Under the pieces are notes generated by a model, which worked only from the letters and a program-made list of their open reading frames with translations, did no database searches and had not been told where the DNA came from. This document shows, piece after piece, positions 36,847-42,850 of a stretch of DNA of 51,251 nt. The position numbers and the translations under genes are program-made. The stretch comes from Corallococcus terminator (GTDB taxonomy: Bacteria; Myxococcota; Myxococcia; Myxococcales; Myxococcaceae): positions 1 through 51,251 of the forward strand of contig NZ_RAVZ01000019.1 in NCBI RefSeq assembly GCF_003611635.1, in the 5' to 3' direction. Every line of letters begins with the position of its first letter. Position 1 is the first letter of the stretch.

Positions 36847-38469
36847 ATGAGCATCGTTTCGAGTGGCACCCGTGGCATCGCCATCGCACTCATCGGCGTG
36901 AGCGCACTCGCCGCCGGCTGTGGTGAGGTCCAGGGCACGCCGGAGAACAGCCCGTCCCAGGCCCATGAAGCGAAAGCCTCTCTGGAGCGCACCTCCGCCA
37001 TCGTCCCGGAGCGAGAGCTGGTCATCCAGGACCCGGGCGTGGTGAACGACGCGGTTCGCACCACGGGGTCTGGTGCGCTGTCCACGGACGGGAATGCCGC
37101 GGAGGGAGCGTGGAGCTTCGGTCGTCTGGTCGCCAGGCTGAGCGGCCCCGTGGCCCCCGAGGACTTCGTGCGGGACCTGCTCACGCGGTGGGAGGCCGGC
37201 GTCGCGCGGGACTGGCCGACGCGCGCCGATGGAAAGCTGGACCTGACGAAGGCGCCCCTGCGCCTGCGGTCCATCGCCAACCGCCTGGACCTGCGCGACG
37301 TGTCGCGAGGCAGCGCCGGTGAAGGTCACTTCGTCTTCGACGTGCTCGACGCGAGCGGCCAGCCGCTGGGCCTCACCATCACCCTCGCGTACGAGCTGCC
37401 CGCGCGGACGCACGCGGACGTGCTCGAGCAGGCCCGCCGCTGGCATGCGCTGGCCCGCCTGACGCCTGGCACCGAGGCGTTCAACTCCGCCCTCCAGGCC
37501 ATCACCGACCGCTTCCCGCCCGGGGCGGGCCGGGCCATCCTCGGCACCACCGAGCCGACCGAGCCGAAGGAACTCGGGCGCCGCGCCGCCGACCTGCGCA
37601 CCCTGCTGGACGACGATACCCAGGCGCCCACCGCGACGCTCACCGCGCCGGCTGGCGGCAGCTTCGTGCGCTCCACCGTGACGGTCACGGCGAACGCCAC
37701 CGACGACGTGGGTGTCGCCCGCGTGGACTTCTTCGATGGCGCCTCGCTCATCGGCTCTTCGTTCACCGCGCCGTTCAGCGCGTCCTGGAACACGTCGTCG
37801 TTGTTGCAAGGGGTGCATTCGCTGACCGCGCAGGCCTTCGATGCCGCCGGCAACAGCGGCACCTCCAGCGCGGTGAACGTCACCGTGGACAACAATCCCC
37901 CGCTGGTCCTCACGGGCGCGCCCCAGTACACGCCCACCACCCAGAACTACGTGCGCGGCACCGTCACCGTGTCGTGGACGGTGGCCCTGCAAGGGGGGGC
38001 TCCCGTGTCCCTGGCGCGGGTCTACCAGGACGGGGCCGTGCTGACGTCGAGTCCCAACGTCTCCGGCACCGTCTACTCCATCTCCTGGAACACGCTGGTG
38101 CTGGGCAACCGCGCCTACAACATCGGCTTCCAGGCGACCGACGCCGCGGGCAACGCGTCCGTCCTCAACACCCGGTCGCTCATCGTGGACAACGTGAAGC
38201 CGTCCGTGTCGAACATCACCTCGCCCGCCAACGGCGCGGTGGTCAGCGGCATCGTCACGCTGGCGGCGTCCGCGAGCGACAGCCAGGCCCTGGCCTACGT
38301 CATCTTCGAAGTGGACGGCGTGAACCTCACGCCCTACGCGACCACCGCGCCGTTCACGAAGACCTGGGACACCACCGGCCAGTCCGGCACGCATGTGATT
38401 GTCGCCATCGCCACGGACCGCGCGGGCAATGTGCGGCGCAGCAACCCGGTTACCGTGACCGTGCCGTAG
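36847..38469 (+). CDS. Lipoprotein with N-terminal unique domain and three Ig-like repeats
   Basis: A 540-residue lipoprotein (lipobox SALAAGC, Cys25). About residues 60-250 form a domain I do not recognise, with regularly placed motifs (SFGRLVARLSGPVAPEDFV; LRLRSIANRLDLRDVSRG; GQPLGLTITLAYELPA); this block recurs in myxobacterial lipoproteins and may be an adhesion or substrate domain. About 258-350, 355-445 and 448-540 are Big/Ig-like repeats, each with a VDFFDG, YQDGAVL or FEVDGVNL strand and an AGN turn (DAAGNSGTS, DAAGNASVL, DRAGNVRRS). It is probably a surface protein. A strong hairpin follows. Confidence 0.8.
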   Translation: MSIVSSGTRGIAIALIGVSALAAGCGEVQGTPENSPSQAHEAKASLERTSAIVPERELVIQDPGVVNDAVRTTGSGALSTDGNAAEGAWSFGRLVARLSGPVAPEDFVRDLLTRWEAGVARDWPTRADGKLDLTKAPLRLRSIANRLDLRDVSRGSAGEGHFVFDVLDASGQPLGLTITLAYELPARTHADVLEQARRWHALARLTPGTEAFNSALQAITDRFPPGAGRAILGTTEPTEPKELGRRAADLRTLLDDDTQAPTATLTAPAGGSFVRSTVTVTANATDDVGVARVDFFDGASLIGSSFTAPFSASWNTSSLLQGVHSLTAQAFDAAGNSGTSSAVNVTVDNNPPLVLTGAPQYTPTTQNYVRGTVTVSWTVALQGGAPVSLARVYQDGAVLTSSPNVSGTVYSISWNTLVLGNRAYNIGFQATDAAGNASVLNTRSLIVDNVKPSVSNITSPANGAVVSGIVTLAASASDSQALAYVIFEVDGVNLTPYATTAPFTKTWDTTGQSGTHVIVAIATDRAGNVRRSNPVTVTVP

Positions 38470-38719: not shown

Positions 38720-39337
38720 ATGAGCTTCACCTCCCGTTCTGTCTCCCTGATGCTCCTTGGCACCGCCCTGCTGGGTGGCTGTGATGCAGCGCCCACGACC
38801 ACCCCCATCAACGAGAGCACCGTCCTCCCCACCGACGACCTGGGAACGGTCGAGAGCCGTACGAACGCCCAGCCTGCGGGCTACTGCACCTCGATCGCGT
38901 TCGTATCCGGCTTCTCGCTCGAGATGGAGCAGGCCGTGATTGCACTCGTCAACCAGCGGCGTGCGACGGGAGCCATCTGTGGCGGCGTGGCGAAACCGCC
39001 GGTGCCGCCGCTCACCGCGGAGTCGCGCCTGAACTGCTCCGCGCGCAATCACGCCCTGGACATGGGCAAGTTTGGCTACTTCGGCAACATCGGCCAGAGC
39101 GGCTGGACGCCTTTGCGGCGGATCACCCTCGCGGGCTACACGCCGCTTTCGTACGCGGAGGAGAACATCGCCGCGGGTTACACCAGCACCGCGGCCGCCG
39201 TGGTGGACGCATGGATGGCCACTCCCCGTGACTGCAACAACATCATGAACCCCGCGCACCTCCATGTGGGCGTGGGTCAATACACCGTGCCGGGCAGCAC
39301 GTACGGCTACTGGGTGCAGGACTTCGGCCGGCCCTGA
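38720..39337 (+). CDS. CAP/SCP-domain lipoprotein
   Basis: A 205-residue lipoprotein (lipobox ALLGGC) with one CAP (cysteine-rich secretory protein, antigen 5, PR-1) domain: MEQAVIALVNQRRATGAIC, CSARNHALDMGKFGYFGNIG, YAEENIAAGYTSTAAAVVDA and WMATPRDCNNIMNP. The usual His of the SPGHC-like motif is Asp here (PRDC), and the His often found after the first helix turn (FxH) is Asn (FGNIG), so the cavity ligands differ from the standard four. Cysteines suggest disulfides. Bacterial CAP proteins are often extracellular enzymes or binders; the role is unknown. Confidence 0.88.
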   Translation: MSFTSRSVSLMLLGTALLGGCDAAPTTTPINESTVLPTDDLGTVESRTNAQPAGYCTSIAFVSGFSLEMEQAVIALVNQRRATGAICGGVAKPPVPPLTAESRLNCSARNHALDMGKFGYFGNIGQSGWTPLRRITLAGYTPLSYAEENIAAGYTSTAAAVVDAWMATPRDCNNIMNPAHLHVGVGQYTVPGSTYGYWVQDFGRP

Positions 39338-39445: not shown

Positions 39446-41566
39446 TTACTCGTCGGGCTCCTCGTTCTGCACGTCGATGTTGGCGATCCCCACGGGGCAG
39501 TACTCGTAGTACCTCACCAGGTACCGGATGTTCAGGCTGCCATCCTTCACGCAGCGCTGCATCAGTCCCCCGAGTCTGTTGTTCCGGTGCAGGTCTTCGA
39601 GGACGGACTTCCGGCTGGCGATCTGCGCCTCGCCCGCGGAGCGCCCCGAGGGGCTGTTGGGCTTGATCTCGATGACCTCACAAGAGCCATCCGAGACGTT
39701 CACGCAGTCGATGCGCCCCCCTGGAATCTCGTACTCCATCGCCGTGCAGCCGGTCTGGAGCGCGAGGTGCTTCTTGTTCCCGTTCTCCAGGTACATGTTC
39801 ACCAGCGGGTTGTTCCTGCCACGCAGGATGCCCAGATTCCCCGCATCCTCAAGGCGCTTGTAGGTCGCGGTCATGTTCCGCTTCTGGCGGTTCACCTCCG
39901 CCTTGAGCGTCGGGTTCCGGGTGGACTCGACCGCCTTCACGTCGTCAATCAACCGCTTGAGCCGGTCGAGGTACTGGCGTTGCAGGTTGCCCATCACGGA
40001 CGCCACCTCGTCGGCGACGCGCTGCACACGGTCGGCGAGCTGGTATTCGTCCTGGTCACAGAAGGCCTGGAGGAGCTTCTCCGCGCTCTCCTGGCGGAAC
40101 CTCCCGCCCGGCTTCAGGCCCCGGCGCTCCTTCTTCCATTCCTCGTACTCCCGGGCGACCCGCTCCAGGGTCGTCTTCACCAGCAGGTCGCGGTCCTTCA
40201 GCACCTTGAGCGCGTTCACCACGTCCGGGTTGTTGGTGCCCTGCACGAGCTTGCCGCACACGGCCTTCGACTCGTCGAGCCGGCTGCGCATGTGCCGCTG
40301 CATGGCGACCGCGGTCTCCTGGACGCGGTCACGGACCGTCCGCCAGCGCCCTTCGTCGAACGAGAAGCGCTTCGCCTCCTCCAGGAGCCGCTCCTGCTCG
40401 CTGAACTTCCGCTCCGCGGCTTCAAGCTGCTGGCGCGTCTCCGTGGAGAACCGCTCCGCCCGTTCGGTGACGACCTTCACGCCCTCGTCGGCATCATCCA
40501 GGGCGCCCAGGTAGGCCCGCACCGTGCCCATGAGCTGGTCCTCGGTCGTCTTGCACGTCACCTGGATTGAATCGAACGAGAACTGCTGCGGCTTCACCTG
40601 CTTCAGCAATTCCACCGAGCGGCGGAACTCCTTGTTCCGGTCCGGCCAGACATCGGTCATCCGCTTCGCGGTGTCGTCCTCGCCACGCGCACTCTTGAGC
40701 TGTTCAAGCCAGGCCGCGATGTCGGTGCTGGAGCCGAGTGCCGAGTCGAGTTCCGACGTGCCGGTGCGAGCGCCAGCGCCCGAAAGAGCACCCGCGGCCT
40801 GGTCGAGCGACTGGTTGATCCTCTCGGTAAGCTCCCGGCGCACCCGGCTGCTGTCGCCGAGCTTCGCGAGCGCATCCTTCACGGCGTCGGATTCGCGTCC
40901 CCGTGCCAGCTCCTGGCACTTCGACTTCGTCTCCTCCATCCGGCGCGTCCAGCGATCCCAGATATCGCTCACGCCGTCGTGGAGCTCGCCCTTCACGTCC
41001 GACCAGCGGCCCTGGGATTCGGAGAAGTACCTCGCGGTCCCACGTGCGCGGTCCATCTCACCGTGGACCTCCTGCATGCGCTTGTACTCGTCGGAGTACT
41101 GGCGCCCGACCTTGTCGGCCTCTTCGGAGACCTTCGAGACCCCGTTCGGGTCCTTGCGCTCGACGAAGTTCTGCATGAACGCCCGCAGGTTCCGGTCCGC
41201 TTCCGAGCAACGCTCGGACAGGCGGGACTCGTCGGCCTTCACCTGGAAGTCCTTCATCCGCTTCAGCGCCTGCGCCGACTCCCGGAACTTCGGAATCCAG
41301 TCCGGATAGTAATAGACCATCGACTTGCCCGGGTCGCTCTGCGGGTCGAGCGACTTGAGCCGGTCGACCTCGCTCTTGACCGTGTTCAGGTAATCCAGGG
41401 CGGAGTCGATATCGCTGGAGCTCGAATCGGAGACGATTCCGTCGAGCTTGTCCTTGATGCGGGACAGGTTGTCGTCAATCGCACGCACCCGGTCGTCGAT
41501 TTCATCCGCCCAGGCGGGCGCGGCGACGAGGAGCGAAAGCATCGCCAGGGTCAGGGTCTTCTTCAT
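39446..41566 (-). CDS. Secreted coiled-coil protein with internal duplication and nuclease-like C-terminus
   Basis: A 706-residue protein with a signal peptide (MKKTLTLAMLSLLVAAPAWA). About residues 25-560 are charged helices and coiled coils. Two halves look duplicated: DIDSALDYLNTV, WIPKFRESAQALKRMKDF and SESQGRWSDVKGE in the first match ELDSALGSS, NKEFRRSVELLKQVKPQ and SFDEGRWRTVRDR in the second, and each ends in a Cys-containing segment (ETKSKCQELARG; ESKAVCGKLVQG). The last 130 residues form a different domain with GGRIDCVNV, CEVIEIKPNS and GEAQ, giving Asp620-x12-Glu633-x-Lys635, the spacing of a PD-(D/E)XK nuclease core. Its start overlaps the stop of the beta-helix gene (ATGA). Nuclease activity is inference. 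Confidence 0.75.
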   Translation of the reverse strand: MKKTLTLAMLSLLVAAPAWADEIDDRVRAIDDNLSRIKDKLDGIVSDSSSSDIDSALDYLNTVKSEVDRLKSLDPQSDPGKSMVYYYPDWIPKFRESAQALKRMKDFQVKADESRLSERCSEADRNLRAFMQNFVERKDPNGVSKVSEEADKVGRQYSDEYKRMQEVHGEMDRARGTARYFSESQGRWSDVKGELHDGVSDIWDRWTRRMEETKSKCQELARGRESDAVKDALAKLGDSSRVRRELTERINQSLDQAAGALSGAGARTGTSELDSALGSSTDIAAWLEQLKSARGEDDTAKRMTDVWPDRNKEFRRSVELLKQVKPQQFSFDSIQVTCKTTEDQLMGTVRAYLGALDDADEGVKVVTERAERFSTETRQQLEAAERKFSEQERLLEEAKRFSFDEGRWRTVRDRVQETAVAMQRHMRSRLDESKAVCGKLVQGTNNPDVVNALKVLKDRDLLVKTTLERVAREYEEWKKERRGLKPGGRFRQESAEKLLQAFCDQDEYQLADRVQRVADEVASVMGNLQRQYLDRLKRLIDDVKAVESTRNPTLKAEVNRQKRNMTATYKRLEDAGNLGILRGRNNPLVNMYLENGNKKHLALQTGCTAMEYEIPGGRIDCVNVSDGSCEVIEIKPNSPSGRSAGEAQIASRKSVLEDLHRNNRLGGLMQRCVKDGSLNIRYLVRYYEYCPVGIANIDVQNEEPDE

Positions 41567-42339
41567 CGATCGCTCCCGGTCTCCAGTGGCTTCGGACGCG
41601 CGCCCTTCACGCGGGCGTTCTTCGGAAACAGCTTCGCTGCCGCCTTCCAGTCAAGTGCGCGGCCCACACCCGGCTTCGCCGGCTCGCCGCCCATCTGTCG
41701 GGGCGCGACCTGGCTCCATTCCTCGGGGGTGAACAGGCTGGTCAACTGCGAGGTCCGGGCGAACCAGCTCGCATAGAAGGCGGGATCGATGTCGAAGCCG
41801 CCGTCCGCCACCACGTTCCCTTCCGCCTTCTTGAAGGGAAGGTCCGCGAGCAGTTGCATGGACTTCTCGTCCACCGTCGGTGGCGGCATGCCCTGCGTCG
41901 AACGGAACGCCGCCCAGTTTCGGAAGAACGCGTTGTTCGTGAGCACGACCTCGTTCAGCCGGGAGTCAGCCCGCACCGCGAAGTTGTCGATGTATTGGAA
42001 CACGTTCCCCTCCACCACCGCCGGGGCGTTGCCCGTCAGCGCGAGCCCGCTGCCCGTTGAGGTCGAGCCATCGTGCGGGCGGCTCCGGTTCCAGACGAAC
42101 AGGACGGTGTTGTCACGGACCTGGGCCGGCCGGGTGCCGAAGCCTCCCGTGACGCGGATGGCCTCGGTAATGGCCTGGAAGGGGTCACGGAATGGCTTCT
42201 CGCGGGAGCCGTCGCCCCCCACGGCGCCCGCGCGAACGAACCAGTCACGCGCATGCGCAGGAAAGGCCAGACACAGCAAGGCCAGGACGACCAACGGGCT
42301 CAGCGATGACGCGAGCCCCACGGGCTTTTTCCATCCCAT
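41563..42339 (-). CDS. Secreted parallel beta-helix protein, probably shortened
   Basis: A 258-residue secreted protein from ATG 42339 (GGGGGG about ten bases upstream; longer in-frame starts precede the signal peptide). The signal (VVLALLCLAFPAHA) is followed by RDWFVRAGAVGGDGSREKPF and RDPFQAI, the standard opening of DUF1565-type parallel beta-helix proteins. The next expected rungs (the GDTIHVAAGTY-like strand series) are missing; the text jumps to DNTVLFVWNRSRPHDG and a few late rungs (APAVVEGNVFQYIDNF; VVLTNNAFFRNWAAF). Full-length relatives are much longer, so an internal deletion is likely (inference). It is translationally coupled to the coiled-coil gene, which suggests a shared secreted role. 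Confidence 0.72.
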   Translation of the reverse strand: MGWKKPVGLASSLSPLVVLALLCLAFPAHARDWFVRAGAVGGDGSREKPFRDPFQAITEAIRVTGGFGTRPAQVRDNTVLFVWNRSRPHDGSTSTGSGLALTGNAPAVVEGNVFQYIDNFAVRADSRLNEVVLTNNAFFRNWAAFRSTQGMPPPTVDEKSMQLLADLPFKKAEGNVVADGGFDIDPAFYASWFARTSQLTSLFTPEEWSQVAPRQMGGEPAKPGVGRALDWKAAAKLFPKNARVKGARPKPLETGSDR

Positions 42340-42469
42340 CGATATGTACCCCCCGCGGGTCAGCATAGGAGAACCGGCCCGCGCTCGGAAGGCCCACTCC
42401 ATGACACGTACCGGAGGGCCAGAGGCTCCTGCTTCACGACCGAGCGGGTTCTCTGGTACGTGCCTGCCC

Positions 42470-42850
42470 ATGCTCGACCACACTGGCATTGGCGTCGCGG
42501 ACGTCGCCCGTTCCGCTGCCTTCTACGACGCGGCACTGGGAGCGCTGGGCCTCCGCCGGGTCATGCAGCTTCCCGAGGACCTTGGTACCGATGGCATCGG
42601 GTACGGTCGCGACCACCCCATCTTCTGGATCGATCGCTTCCATCCGCACAGCGTGAAGCAACACACGGCCTTCGCGGCCCGAAGCCGGGCGGAGGTCGAC
42701 GCCTTCCACGCGGCCGCGATGGCGGCGGGTGGGACGGACAACGGAGCGCCCGGGCTTCGCTCCCCCGCCACCGGCTACCCGCAGGGCTACTACGCGGCCT
42801 TCGTGCTCGATCCGGACGGCAACAACATGGAAGCGGTCTTCCGCGGCTGA
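42470..42850 (+). CDS. VOC-superfamily (glyoxalase/bleomycin-resistance fold) protein
   Basis: A 126-residue single VOC unit: LDHTGIGVADVARSAAFYDA with metal-ligand-type His4, GLRRVMQLPE, then YYAAFVLDPDGNNMEAVFRG with the terminal Glu of NNMEAV as the usual second ligand. Two beta-alpha-beta-beta-beta modules are expected, acting as a dimer. Relatives include glyoxalase-like enzymes and dioxygenases; the substrate is unknown. The longer open frame upstream is antisense to the beta-helix gene, so ATG 42470 is chosen. Confidence 0.88.
   Translation: MLDHTGIGVADVARSAAFYDAALGALGLRRVMQLPEDLGTDGIGYGRDHPIFWIDRFHPHSVKQHTAFAARSRAEVDAFHAAAMAAGGTDNGAPGLRSPATGYPQGYYAAFVLDPDGNNMEAVFRG

What the first reader, a model, noticed from the sequence alone, without database searches (positions are those of the whole stretch)
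39446..41566. Secreted protein with ancient internal duplication and a PD-(D/E)XK-like end
Two 220-residue halves share matching motifs in the same order (DSAL, FRES/FRRS, GRW, ESK-C). The C-terminal 130 residues differ and carry D-x12-E-x-K plus a later Gln, as in nuclease cores. A secreted coiled-coil stalk with a nuclease tip would be a natural predatory or contact-dependent toxin design. The function is not established.
Basis: partly seen in the sequence, partly recalled or inferred. Interest (0 to 1): 0.65.

Follow-up and report, generated by a model that had tools for sequence, protein, structure and literature searches.

The report
Secreted stalked nuclease of predatory myxobacteria
A soil predator bacterium carries a gene for an exported protein that is probably a DNA- or RNA-cutting enzyme on a twice-repeated helical stalk, made together with a second exported protein; it is more likely a tough enzyme that works outside cells than an injected toxin.

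Summary
Window 39446-41566 (-) encodes a 706-aa protein with a Sec-type signal peptide, two 220-residue repeats (25% identity over 211 residues, far above shuffles) and a different C-terminal domain with D620, E633, K635 and Q648. That domain is related to Tox-REase-9, a PD-(D/E)XK toxin-nuclease family: profile E 3.5e-9, shared GxxxH / D / E-[IL]-K-P signature, and a low-confidence alpha-beta-beta-beta-alpha-beta model whose hairpin register puts D620 opposite E633. All four residues are invariant in 14 diverged rows. New facts change the reading. Each repeat carries one invariant cysteine pair and the nuclease domain five invariant cysteines; totals are even in 16 of 17 members, so the protein is probably disulfide-stapled and works outside the cytoplasm. 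No downstream gene family is shared by more than three loci and the tip is not seen exchanged, so it does not meet the definition of a polymorphic toxin. In 10 loci the gene follows, usually with a 4-bp overlap, a secreted right-handed beta-helix protein; the window's copy of that partner has lost about 666 residues. Most likely an extracellular nuclease acting on matrix or prey nucleic acid. Cleavage, substrate and target are not shown.

The parts
39446..41566 (-). Whole gene, 706 aa: signal peptide, two helical repeats, linker, PD-(D/E)XK-like nuclease domain
41507..41566 (-). Signal peptide, residues 1-20, no lipobox cysteine
   Evidence: sequence; same pattern in relatives
40847..41506 (-). 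Helical repeat 1, residues 21-240, with the invariant pair C120/C217
40187..40846 (-). Helical repeat 2, residues 241-460, with the invariant pair C338/C437
39821..40186 (-). Helical linker, residues 461-582, with C503
39497..39820 (-). Tox-REase-9-like PD-(D/E)XK domain, residues 583-690; H600, D620, E633, K635, Q648 and C607/C621/C629/C672/C690 invariant in 14 rows
39707..39709 (-). D620 codon, predicted metal ligand
   Evidence: hairpin register
39662..39670 (-). E633-I634-K635 codons, predicted metal ligand and catalytic lysine
39623..39625 (-). Q648 codon, helix after beta3
41563..42489 (-). Partner gene (listed ORF; the Met that aligns with relatives is at 42339, giving 258 aa): truncated copy of a 913-934 aa secreted right-handed beta-helix protein, 4-bp overlap with the nuclease gene

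Best explanation
It is an exported, probably disulfide-stapled nuclease. The Sec signal peptide takes it to the periplasm and from there it is probably released (route not known). Two duplicated helical units form a stalk, each stapled by its own cysteine pair. The stalk carries a metal-dependent PD-(D/E)XK domain of Tox-REase-9 type (D620, E633, K635, with Q648 and H600). It probably cuts nucleic acid outside the cell: DNA in a biofilm matrix, or DNA and RNA released by lysed prey. It is made by translational coupling with a secreted beta-helix protein that may anchor it to, or act on, polysaccharide. Shown by computation: duplication, domain homology, residue and cysteine conservation, gene overlap, purifying selection. 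Inferred: disulfides, cleavage, substrate, export route, translational coupling, the partner's role and the biological purpose.
For: Nuclease: Pfam Tox-REase-9 matches 8 of 9 members, sub-threshold, best E 1.1e-4. The family profile finds G059 and G062 at E 2e-7 and 1e-6, and these are the only two genomes of 193 with over-cutoff PF15650 matches. With those two left out of the profile, hhalign gives probability 96.1 and E 3.5e-9, and HMMER gives them 2.5e-10 and 1.8e-9 against 0.057 for the best of 5000 shuffles of the G059 domain. The published Tox-REase-9 signature 'GxxxH, E, D, ELKP, YxxE' (PMC3482391, passages) is met for GxxxH, D and E-[IL]-K-P. Model with alpha-beta-beta-beta-alpha-beta order; the 50 aligned rows shown have Z 5.3-6.6 and are, to my knowledge, PD-(D/E)XK chains. 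Extracytoplasmic: one cysteine pair in 29 of 29 repeats; even totals in 16 of 17 members; totals of 10, 8 and 6 with 2, 1 and 0 repeats in the window protein, G075 and G097b. No shared immunity gene. Coupling: partner adjacent in 10 loci, window included; 4-bp overlap in 8 of 9 tested and in the window. Purifying selection: dN/dS 0.06-0.43 in repeats, linker and nuclease domain against four relatives.
Against: No match above any Pfam or NCBIfam cutoff for the window protein and none in the PDB by sequence. The domain model has mean pLDDT 64 from 5 similar sequences, and the other four models 36-43. Foldseek gives no hit at E <= 0.001, and its list also holds non-nucleases such as 8uxa, 5cuk and 6qek; Z is below 8 throughout, and those chains were picked by Foldseek beforehand. 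The Tyr of YxxE is Arg (R652) in the window protein and five close rows, though Tyr in the other 8 of 14. G099 has 13 cysteines, and G082b has 10 with only one repeat, so the count does not follow the repeats alone. Relatedness of members is not controlled in the parity count. The 16-residue tail has dN/dS 0.28-1.60. Found in only 18 of 195 genomes, counting the two short Tox-REase-9 proteins and one fragment, so not a core function.
Confidence: 0.6

Rival explanations
1. A predatory effector: the stalk presents the nuclease at the contact site and the tip enters prey cells of distant species, where it degrades the genome. No immunity is needed because kin are not targets.
For: The nearest family is a toxin nuclease family. 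PMC3482391 states that immunity proteins distinguish polymorphic toxins from conventional toxins aimed at distant organisms (passage), so lack of immunity does not exclude a toxin. Myxobacteria kill prey by contact (PMC10433427, passages).
Against: Disulfide-type cysteine pairs would be reduced in prey cytoplasm (inference). No known delivery domain was found in the window protein. Patchy distribution.
Confidence: 0.22
2. A polymorphic, kin-discriminating toxin such as SitA, CDI or Rhs.
For: Same nuclease superfamily as many such toxins (PMC3482391); variable number of repeats in the stalk. Some loci have an unshared small gene next downstream in the same orientation, for example 143 aa in G090 and 147 aa in G092.
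Against: No downstream family shared by more than three loci, although the tip is 78-95% identical among close relatives and one immunity protein should then serve all; true Tox-REase-9 genes in G059 and G062 overlap a DUF4304 gene. All 15 genomes with the repeats also have the C-terminal domain. Signal peptide without lipobox.
Confidence: 0.05
3. A dead nuclease fold used for binding, for example a matrix or surface structural protein with a DNA-binding tip.
For: Low-confidence model; some PD-(D/E)XK domains have lost activity (recalled, no call).
Confidence: 0.1
4. A periplasmic nuclease that removes incoming DNA, such as phage DNA or uptake DNA.
For: Signal peptide and cysteine pairs fit the periplasm.
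Against: No PADLOC match better than E 0.24; the partner is a large beta-helix protein with its own signal peptide, though that too could stay in the periplasm.
Confidence: 0.06

Closest known systems
Tox-REase-9 (Pfam PF15650; Zhang et al. 2012, PMC3482391)
   Same: Homologous core by profile comparison; GxxxH, D, E-[IL]-K-P and the following Gln.
   Different: Window protein is below the Pfam cutoff (15.8 against 27.3 bits), has Arg for the Tyr of YxxE, five invariant cysteines where G059 and G062 have none (two of the columns are gaps there), a repeat stalk, and no shared immunity gene.
SitA lipoprotein toxins of Myxococcus (PMC10433427, passages)
   Same: Exported myxobacterial protein with a C-terminal nuclease-like domain.
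   Different: SitA is a lipoprotein with a cognate SitI and more than 30 toxin domain families; here no lipobox, no shared immunity gene, one constant tip.
NucS/EndoMS, EXO5, viral cap-snatching endonucleases and R2 endonuclease (PD-(D/E)XK folds)
   Same: Best structural alignments, Z 5.3-6.6 over 71-107 residues.
   Different: 6-18% sequence identity; as I recall, all act inside cells; Z below 8, so only fold-level resemblance.
Right-handed beta-helix / NosD / DUF1565 proteins (Pfam), for the partner
   Same: Partner of G007 matches Beta_helix at E 2.4e-11, above cutoff.
   Different: Two beta-helix halves in one protein with a signal peptide, next to the nuclease gene; the window copy is truncated.

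Membership tests
PD-(D/E)XK nuclease superfamily | Conserved D, then (D/E)-x-K on the next strand | tested here: met
   D620, E633, K635 invariant in 14 of 14 rows; left out of that count: G142 (fragment), G059 and G062 (short; they and G142 also have D, E and K), and close copies L006, L012-L015
PD-(D/E)XK nuclease superfamily | Alpha-beta-beta-beta-alpha-beta core with the acidic residues adjacent | tested here: inconclusive
   Right order of elements and D620 opposite E633 by hairpin register, but pLDDT 64 and Z 6.6 or lower
PD-(D/E)XK nuclease superfamily | Metal-dependent cleavage of nucleic acid | not testable with these tools
   needs an assay
Tox-REase-9 (PF15650) | Pfam score over the curated cutoff | tested here: not met
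   15.8 bits against 27.3; homology is shown only through the family profile
Tox-REase-9 (PF15650) | GxxxH, D, ELKP, YxxE | tested here: inconclusive
   GxxxH, D and E-[IL]-K-P met; the Tyr is Arg in the window protein and Tyr in 8 of 14 rows
Polymorphic toxin system | Adjacent immunity gene | tested here: not met
   Frames of 40 aa or more in up to 2500 bases downstream of 20 loci (two had only 602 and 458 bases): apart from the G059/G062 pair, the largest shared set is three loci (an Ig-domain gene about 1 kb away) and the rest are pairs
Polymorphic toxin system | Exchange of the toxin domain on a constant N-terminal part | tested here: not met
   All 15 genomes with the repeats are among the 18 with this C-terminal domain, in the same genes; the search scored at most 8 candidates per genome and only this phylum
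SitA toxin | Lipoprotein | tested here: not met
   Signal peptide ends in AWA/DE without cysteine; none of the 14 printed relatives has a cysteine in the first 45 residues
Right-handed beta-helix protein (partner) | Pfam Beta_helix over cutoff | tested here: met
   For the intact relatives of G007 and G009, 44.0 and 45.9 bits against 25.9; the truncated window copy has no match

The most novel reading that the evidence does not exclude
A two-protein extracellular machine of predatory myxobacteria: a pair made together in which a secreted double beta-helix protein grips or cuts matrix polysaccharide while a disulfide-stapled PD-(D/E)XK nuclease on a repeat stalk cuts the DNA bound to it, dissolving biofilm matrix. 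Repeat 1 would be the part that holds the partner: 12 of 12 genomes with a close partner (the window's is truncated) have a two-repeat nuclease, and the 2 genomes whose only copy lacks repeat 1 have no partner. G189, with two repeats and no close partner, is an exception, and the two genomes lacking repeat 1 belong to one genus. A toxin-type nuclease would have been remade as a hardy exoenzyme.
Probability: 0.25. Interest if true: 0.6.

Novelty: new variant of a known kind. Interest (0 to 1): 0.48.

Why it matters
If right, a nuclease fold known from injected toxins has been turned into a disulfide-stapled exoenzyme on a stalk of variable length, and myxobacteria hold an unstudied exported nuclease operon. 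In Myxococcus xanthus extracellular DNA binds exopolysaccharide and strengthens the matrix (PMC3530553, abstract), so a protein pair aimed at both would be a directly testable tool for matrix remodelling or predation.

Tried and rejected
Profile search of solved structures with the C-terminal alignment and phmmer with the whole protein: nothing. NCBIfam and PADLOC (window protein) and PHROGs (C-terminal alignment): no convincing match; best E 0.24 in PADLOC and 0.0055 for an unannotated PHROG. Plasmids (C-terminal domain), phages (whole protein) and viral contigs (C-terminal alignment): nothing. Fold search with the full-length model gave assorted mostly helical proteins and no E <= 0.001; not used. 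L019 (G021) matched the domain at E 0.0015 but in a poor frame without the motifs, so I dropped it as chance. The idea that the beta-helix protein is a general carrier for downstream effectors was dropped: beside nine distant homologues (39-40% identity) no nuclease relative lies and no downstream family is shared by more than two, the shared one being in the opposite orientation (one of the nine has only some 350 bases downstream). My first downstream-gene comparison still held the nuclease's own tail and printed only the best pair, so I repeated it without the tail, which is the one cited. T2SSE in the own genome cannot tell type II secretion from pili and is not used. Paper searches for a described family; no paper on this family was seen in the listings, which were capped, and the library lacks most subscription journals.

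Full report
What is there. The ORF at 39446-41566 (-) encodes 706 residues. Residues 1-20 look like a Sec signal peptide with an AxA site and no lipobox. Residues 21-240 and 241-460 are repeats of each other: 25% identity over 211 residues, E 1e-23; Smith-Waterman score 201 against a best shuffle of 75 (residues) or 89 (heptad blocks), 2000 shuffles each. In a tree of 29 repeat units, repeat 1 of all two-repeat members and the single repeat of G082b fall on one branch (support 92/90). That branch includes G189, from another family of the phylum, but long branches make G189's place unsure. So the duplication is old. The single repeat of G030 and G075 groups with repeat 2 and that of G082b with repeat 1, so copies have probably been lost. 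G097b has no detectable repeat.

The C-terminal domain. Pfam gives Tox-REase-9 below its cutoff for the window protein and for 8 of 9 family members, best E 1.1e-4. A family profile searched in 195 Myxococcota genomes finds 20 places in 18 genomes. Two of them, G059 and G062, are full Tox-REase-9 members and are the only genomes of 193 with over-cutoff PF15650 matches. With the two left out of the profile they still match at hhalign E 3.5e-9 and HMMER 2.5e-10 and 1.8e-9, against 0.057 for the best of 5000 shuffles. The published signature of Tox-REase-9 is 'GxxxH, E, D, ELKP, YxxE' (PMC3482391, passages). The window protein has G596xxxH600, D620 and E633-I-K635-P636; in place of the Tyr it has R652, while 8 of 14 rows have Tyr. 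In 14 diverged rows, 16 of 167 window positions are invariant, and these include D620, E633, K635 and Q648.

Structure. The AlphaFold model of residues 540-706 has strands 78-86 and 89-97 as a hairpin; its register puts residue 81 (D620) opposite residue 94 (E633). Its mean pLDDT is only 64, and the other four models are at 36-43. Foldseek's list is mostly cap-snatching endonucleases, with some unrelated chains and no E <= 0.001. The 50 VIA rows shown, Z 5.3-6.6, are arenavirus, bunyavirus and hantavirus endonuclease domains, NucS/EndoMS, EXO5 and an R2 element. That these are PD-(D/E)XK enzymes is my own knowledge. Fold evidence alone would not settle it; with the sequence homology I take the nuclease fold as very likely (about 0.9).

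Cysteines. Each of 29 repeat units has the same two cysteines, and the nuclease domain has five invariant ones; by position most members have one more in the linker. Totals over 17 members are 10 in nine, 12 in four, 8 in the two that lost repeat 1, 6 in the one without repeats, and 13 in G099: even in 16 of 17. G082b has 10 with a single repeat, so its nuclease part carries extra cysteines. The parity and the invariant pair per repeat fit disulfides and a place outside the cytoplasm. The Tox-REase-9 proteins of G059 and G062 have no cysteine at the five columns.

Surroundings. The upstream gene (41563-42489) overlaps the nuclease gene by 4 bases. In 9 other loci the gene at that place encodes a protein of 913-934 aa with a signal peptide; the copies of G007 and G009 have two right-handed beta-helix stretches above the Pfam cutoff. 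The overlap is 4 bases in 8 of 9 tested loci, and in the ninth there is a 2-base gap. From the Met that aligns with relatives, the window copy is 258 aa against 924 in G007: it keeps the signal peptide and about the last 200 residues, and about 666 are gone. Blast pieces suggest two in-frame joins, one inside the repeated RDWFVRAG...GSREKPF start and one beside AGGCCAT sequences; how they arose is inference. The missing part was not found elsewhere in the genome. The partner lies on another contig in G108 and G099. Twelve of twelve genomes with a close partner, the window included, have a two-repeat nuclease.

No immunity gene. In up to 2500 bases downstream of 20 loci, starting at the nuclease stop codon, the shared frames are: the convergent CAP gene in the window and G007, an Ig-domain gene in the window, G009 and G083, a short match in G090 and G094, one weak antisense match, and the G059/G062 pair. 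Small genes directly downstream exist in single loci (143 aa in G090, 147 aa in G092) but are not shared. By contrast the true Tox-REase-9 genes in G059 and G062 overlap a DUF4304 gene, whose role as immunity gene is my inference.

Distribution and selection. In the genus sample 3 of 16 genomes carry it; in the family sample 9 of 96 carry a close copy. No match in plasmids, phages or viral contigs. dN/dS between the window gene and four relatives is 0.08-0.20 for repeat 1, 0.18-0.43 for repeat 2, 0.06-0.20 for the linker and 0.09-0.34 for the nuclease domain: the gene is under purifying selection, repeat 1 more tightly than repeat 2. The genus is probably Corallococcus: G009, of the same genus, has a contig of the same length (71396) as the Corallococcus praedator record that holds the gene.

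How it most likely works. An exported, disulfide-stapled nuclease that acts outside the cell, made with a beta-helix protein that may hold it to polysaccharide. M. xanthus matrix holds DNA bound to exopolysaccharide, and matrix with DNA is stronger than DNase I-treated matrix (PMC3530553, abstract). M. xanthus vesicles carry hydrolases including one predicted nuclease (PMC4158809, passage); I did not test whether that one is related. Substrate, release route and purpose are inferred. A predatory toxin against distant species remains the main rival, because lack of immunity is what PMC3482391 expects of such toxins (passage). A kin-discriminating polymorphic toxin is contradicted on its two defining features.

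Limits. No signal-peptide or coiled-coil predictor was available. Other phyla were not searched beyond one scan of genome contigs with six short peptide patterns. The genome searches score a limited number of candidates per genome. G189 and G142 lie on contigs of about 3 kb and could be misplaced. Gene starts come from a simple caller.

Noticed in passing
window 41563-42489: The beta-helix partner gene is truncated in this strain (258 aa against 924), apparently by two in-frame deletions, while the nuclease gene stays intact; an assembly error is not excluded.
   Followed up: partly
L048:7551-8575 and L049:7506-8617: Two other Myxococcota genomes carry a true Tox-REase-9 gene overlapping a DUF4304 gene, probably a toxin-immunity pair.
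   Followed up: partly
window 38720-39337: A CAP-domain (SCP/PR1-type) protein with a lipobox-like signal (LLGGC), convergent with the nuclease gene; G007 has a relative at the same place.
   Followed up: no
window 36847-38469: A predicted lipoprotein with bacterial Ig-like (Big_7, three stretches) domains; relatives lie about 1 kb or more downstream of the nuclease in G009 and G083.
   Followed up: no
L106-L114: Nine distant homologues of the beta-helix partner (39-40% identity) occur in other Myxococcota without a nuclease relative beside them.
   Followed up: partly
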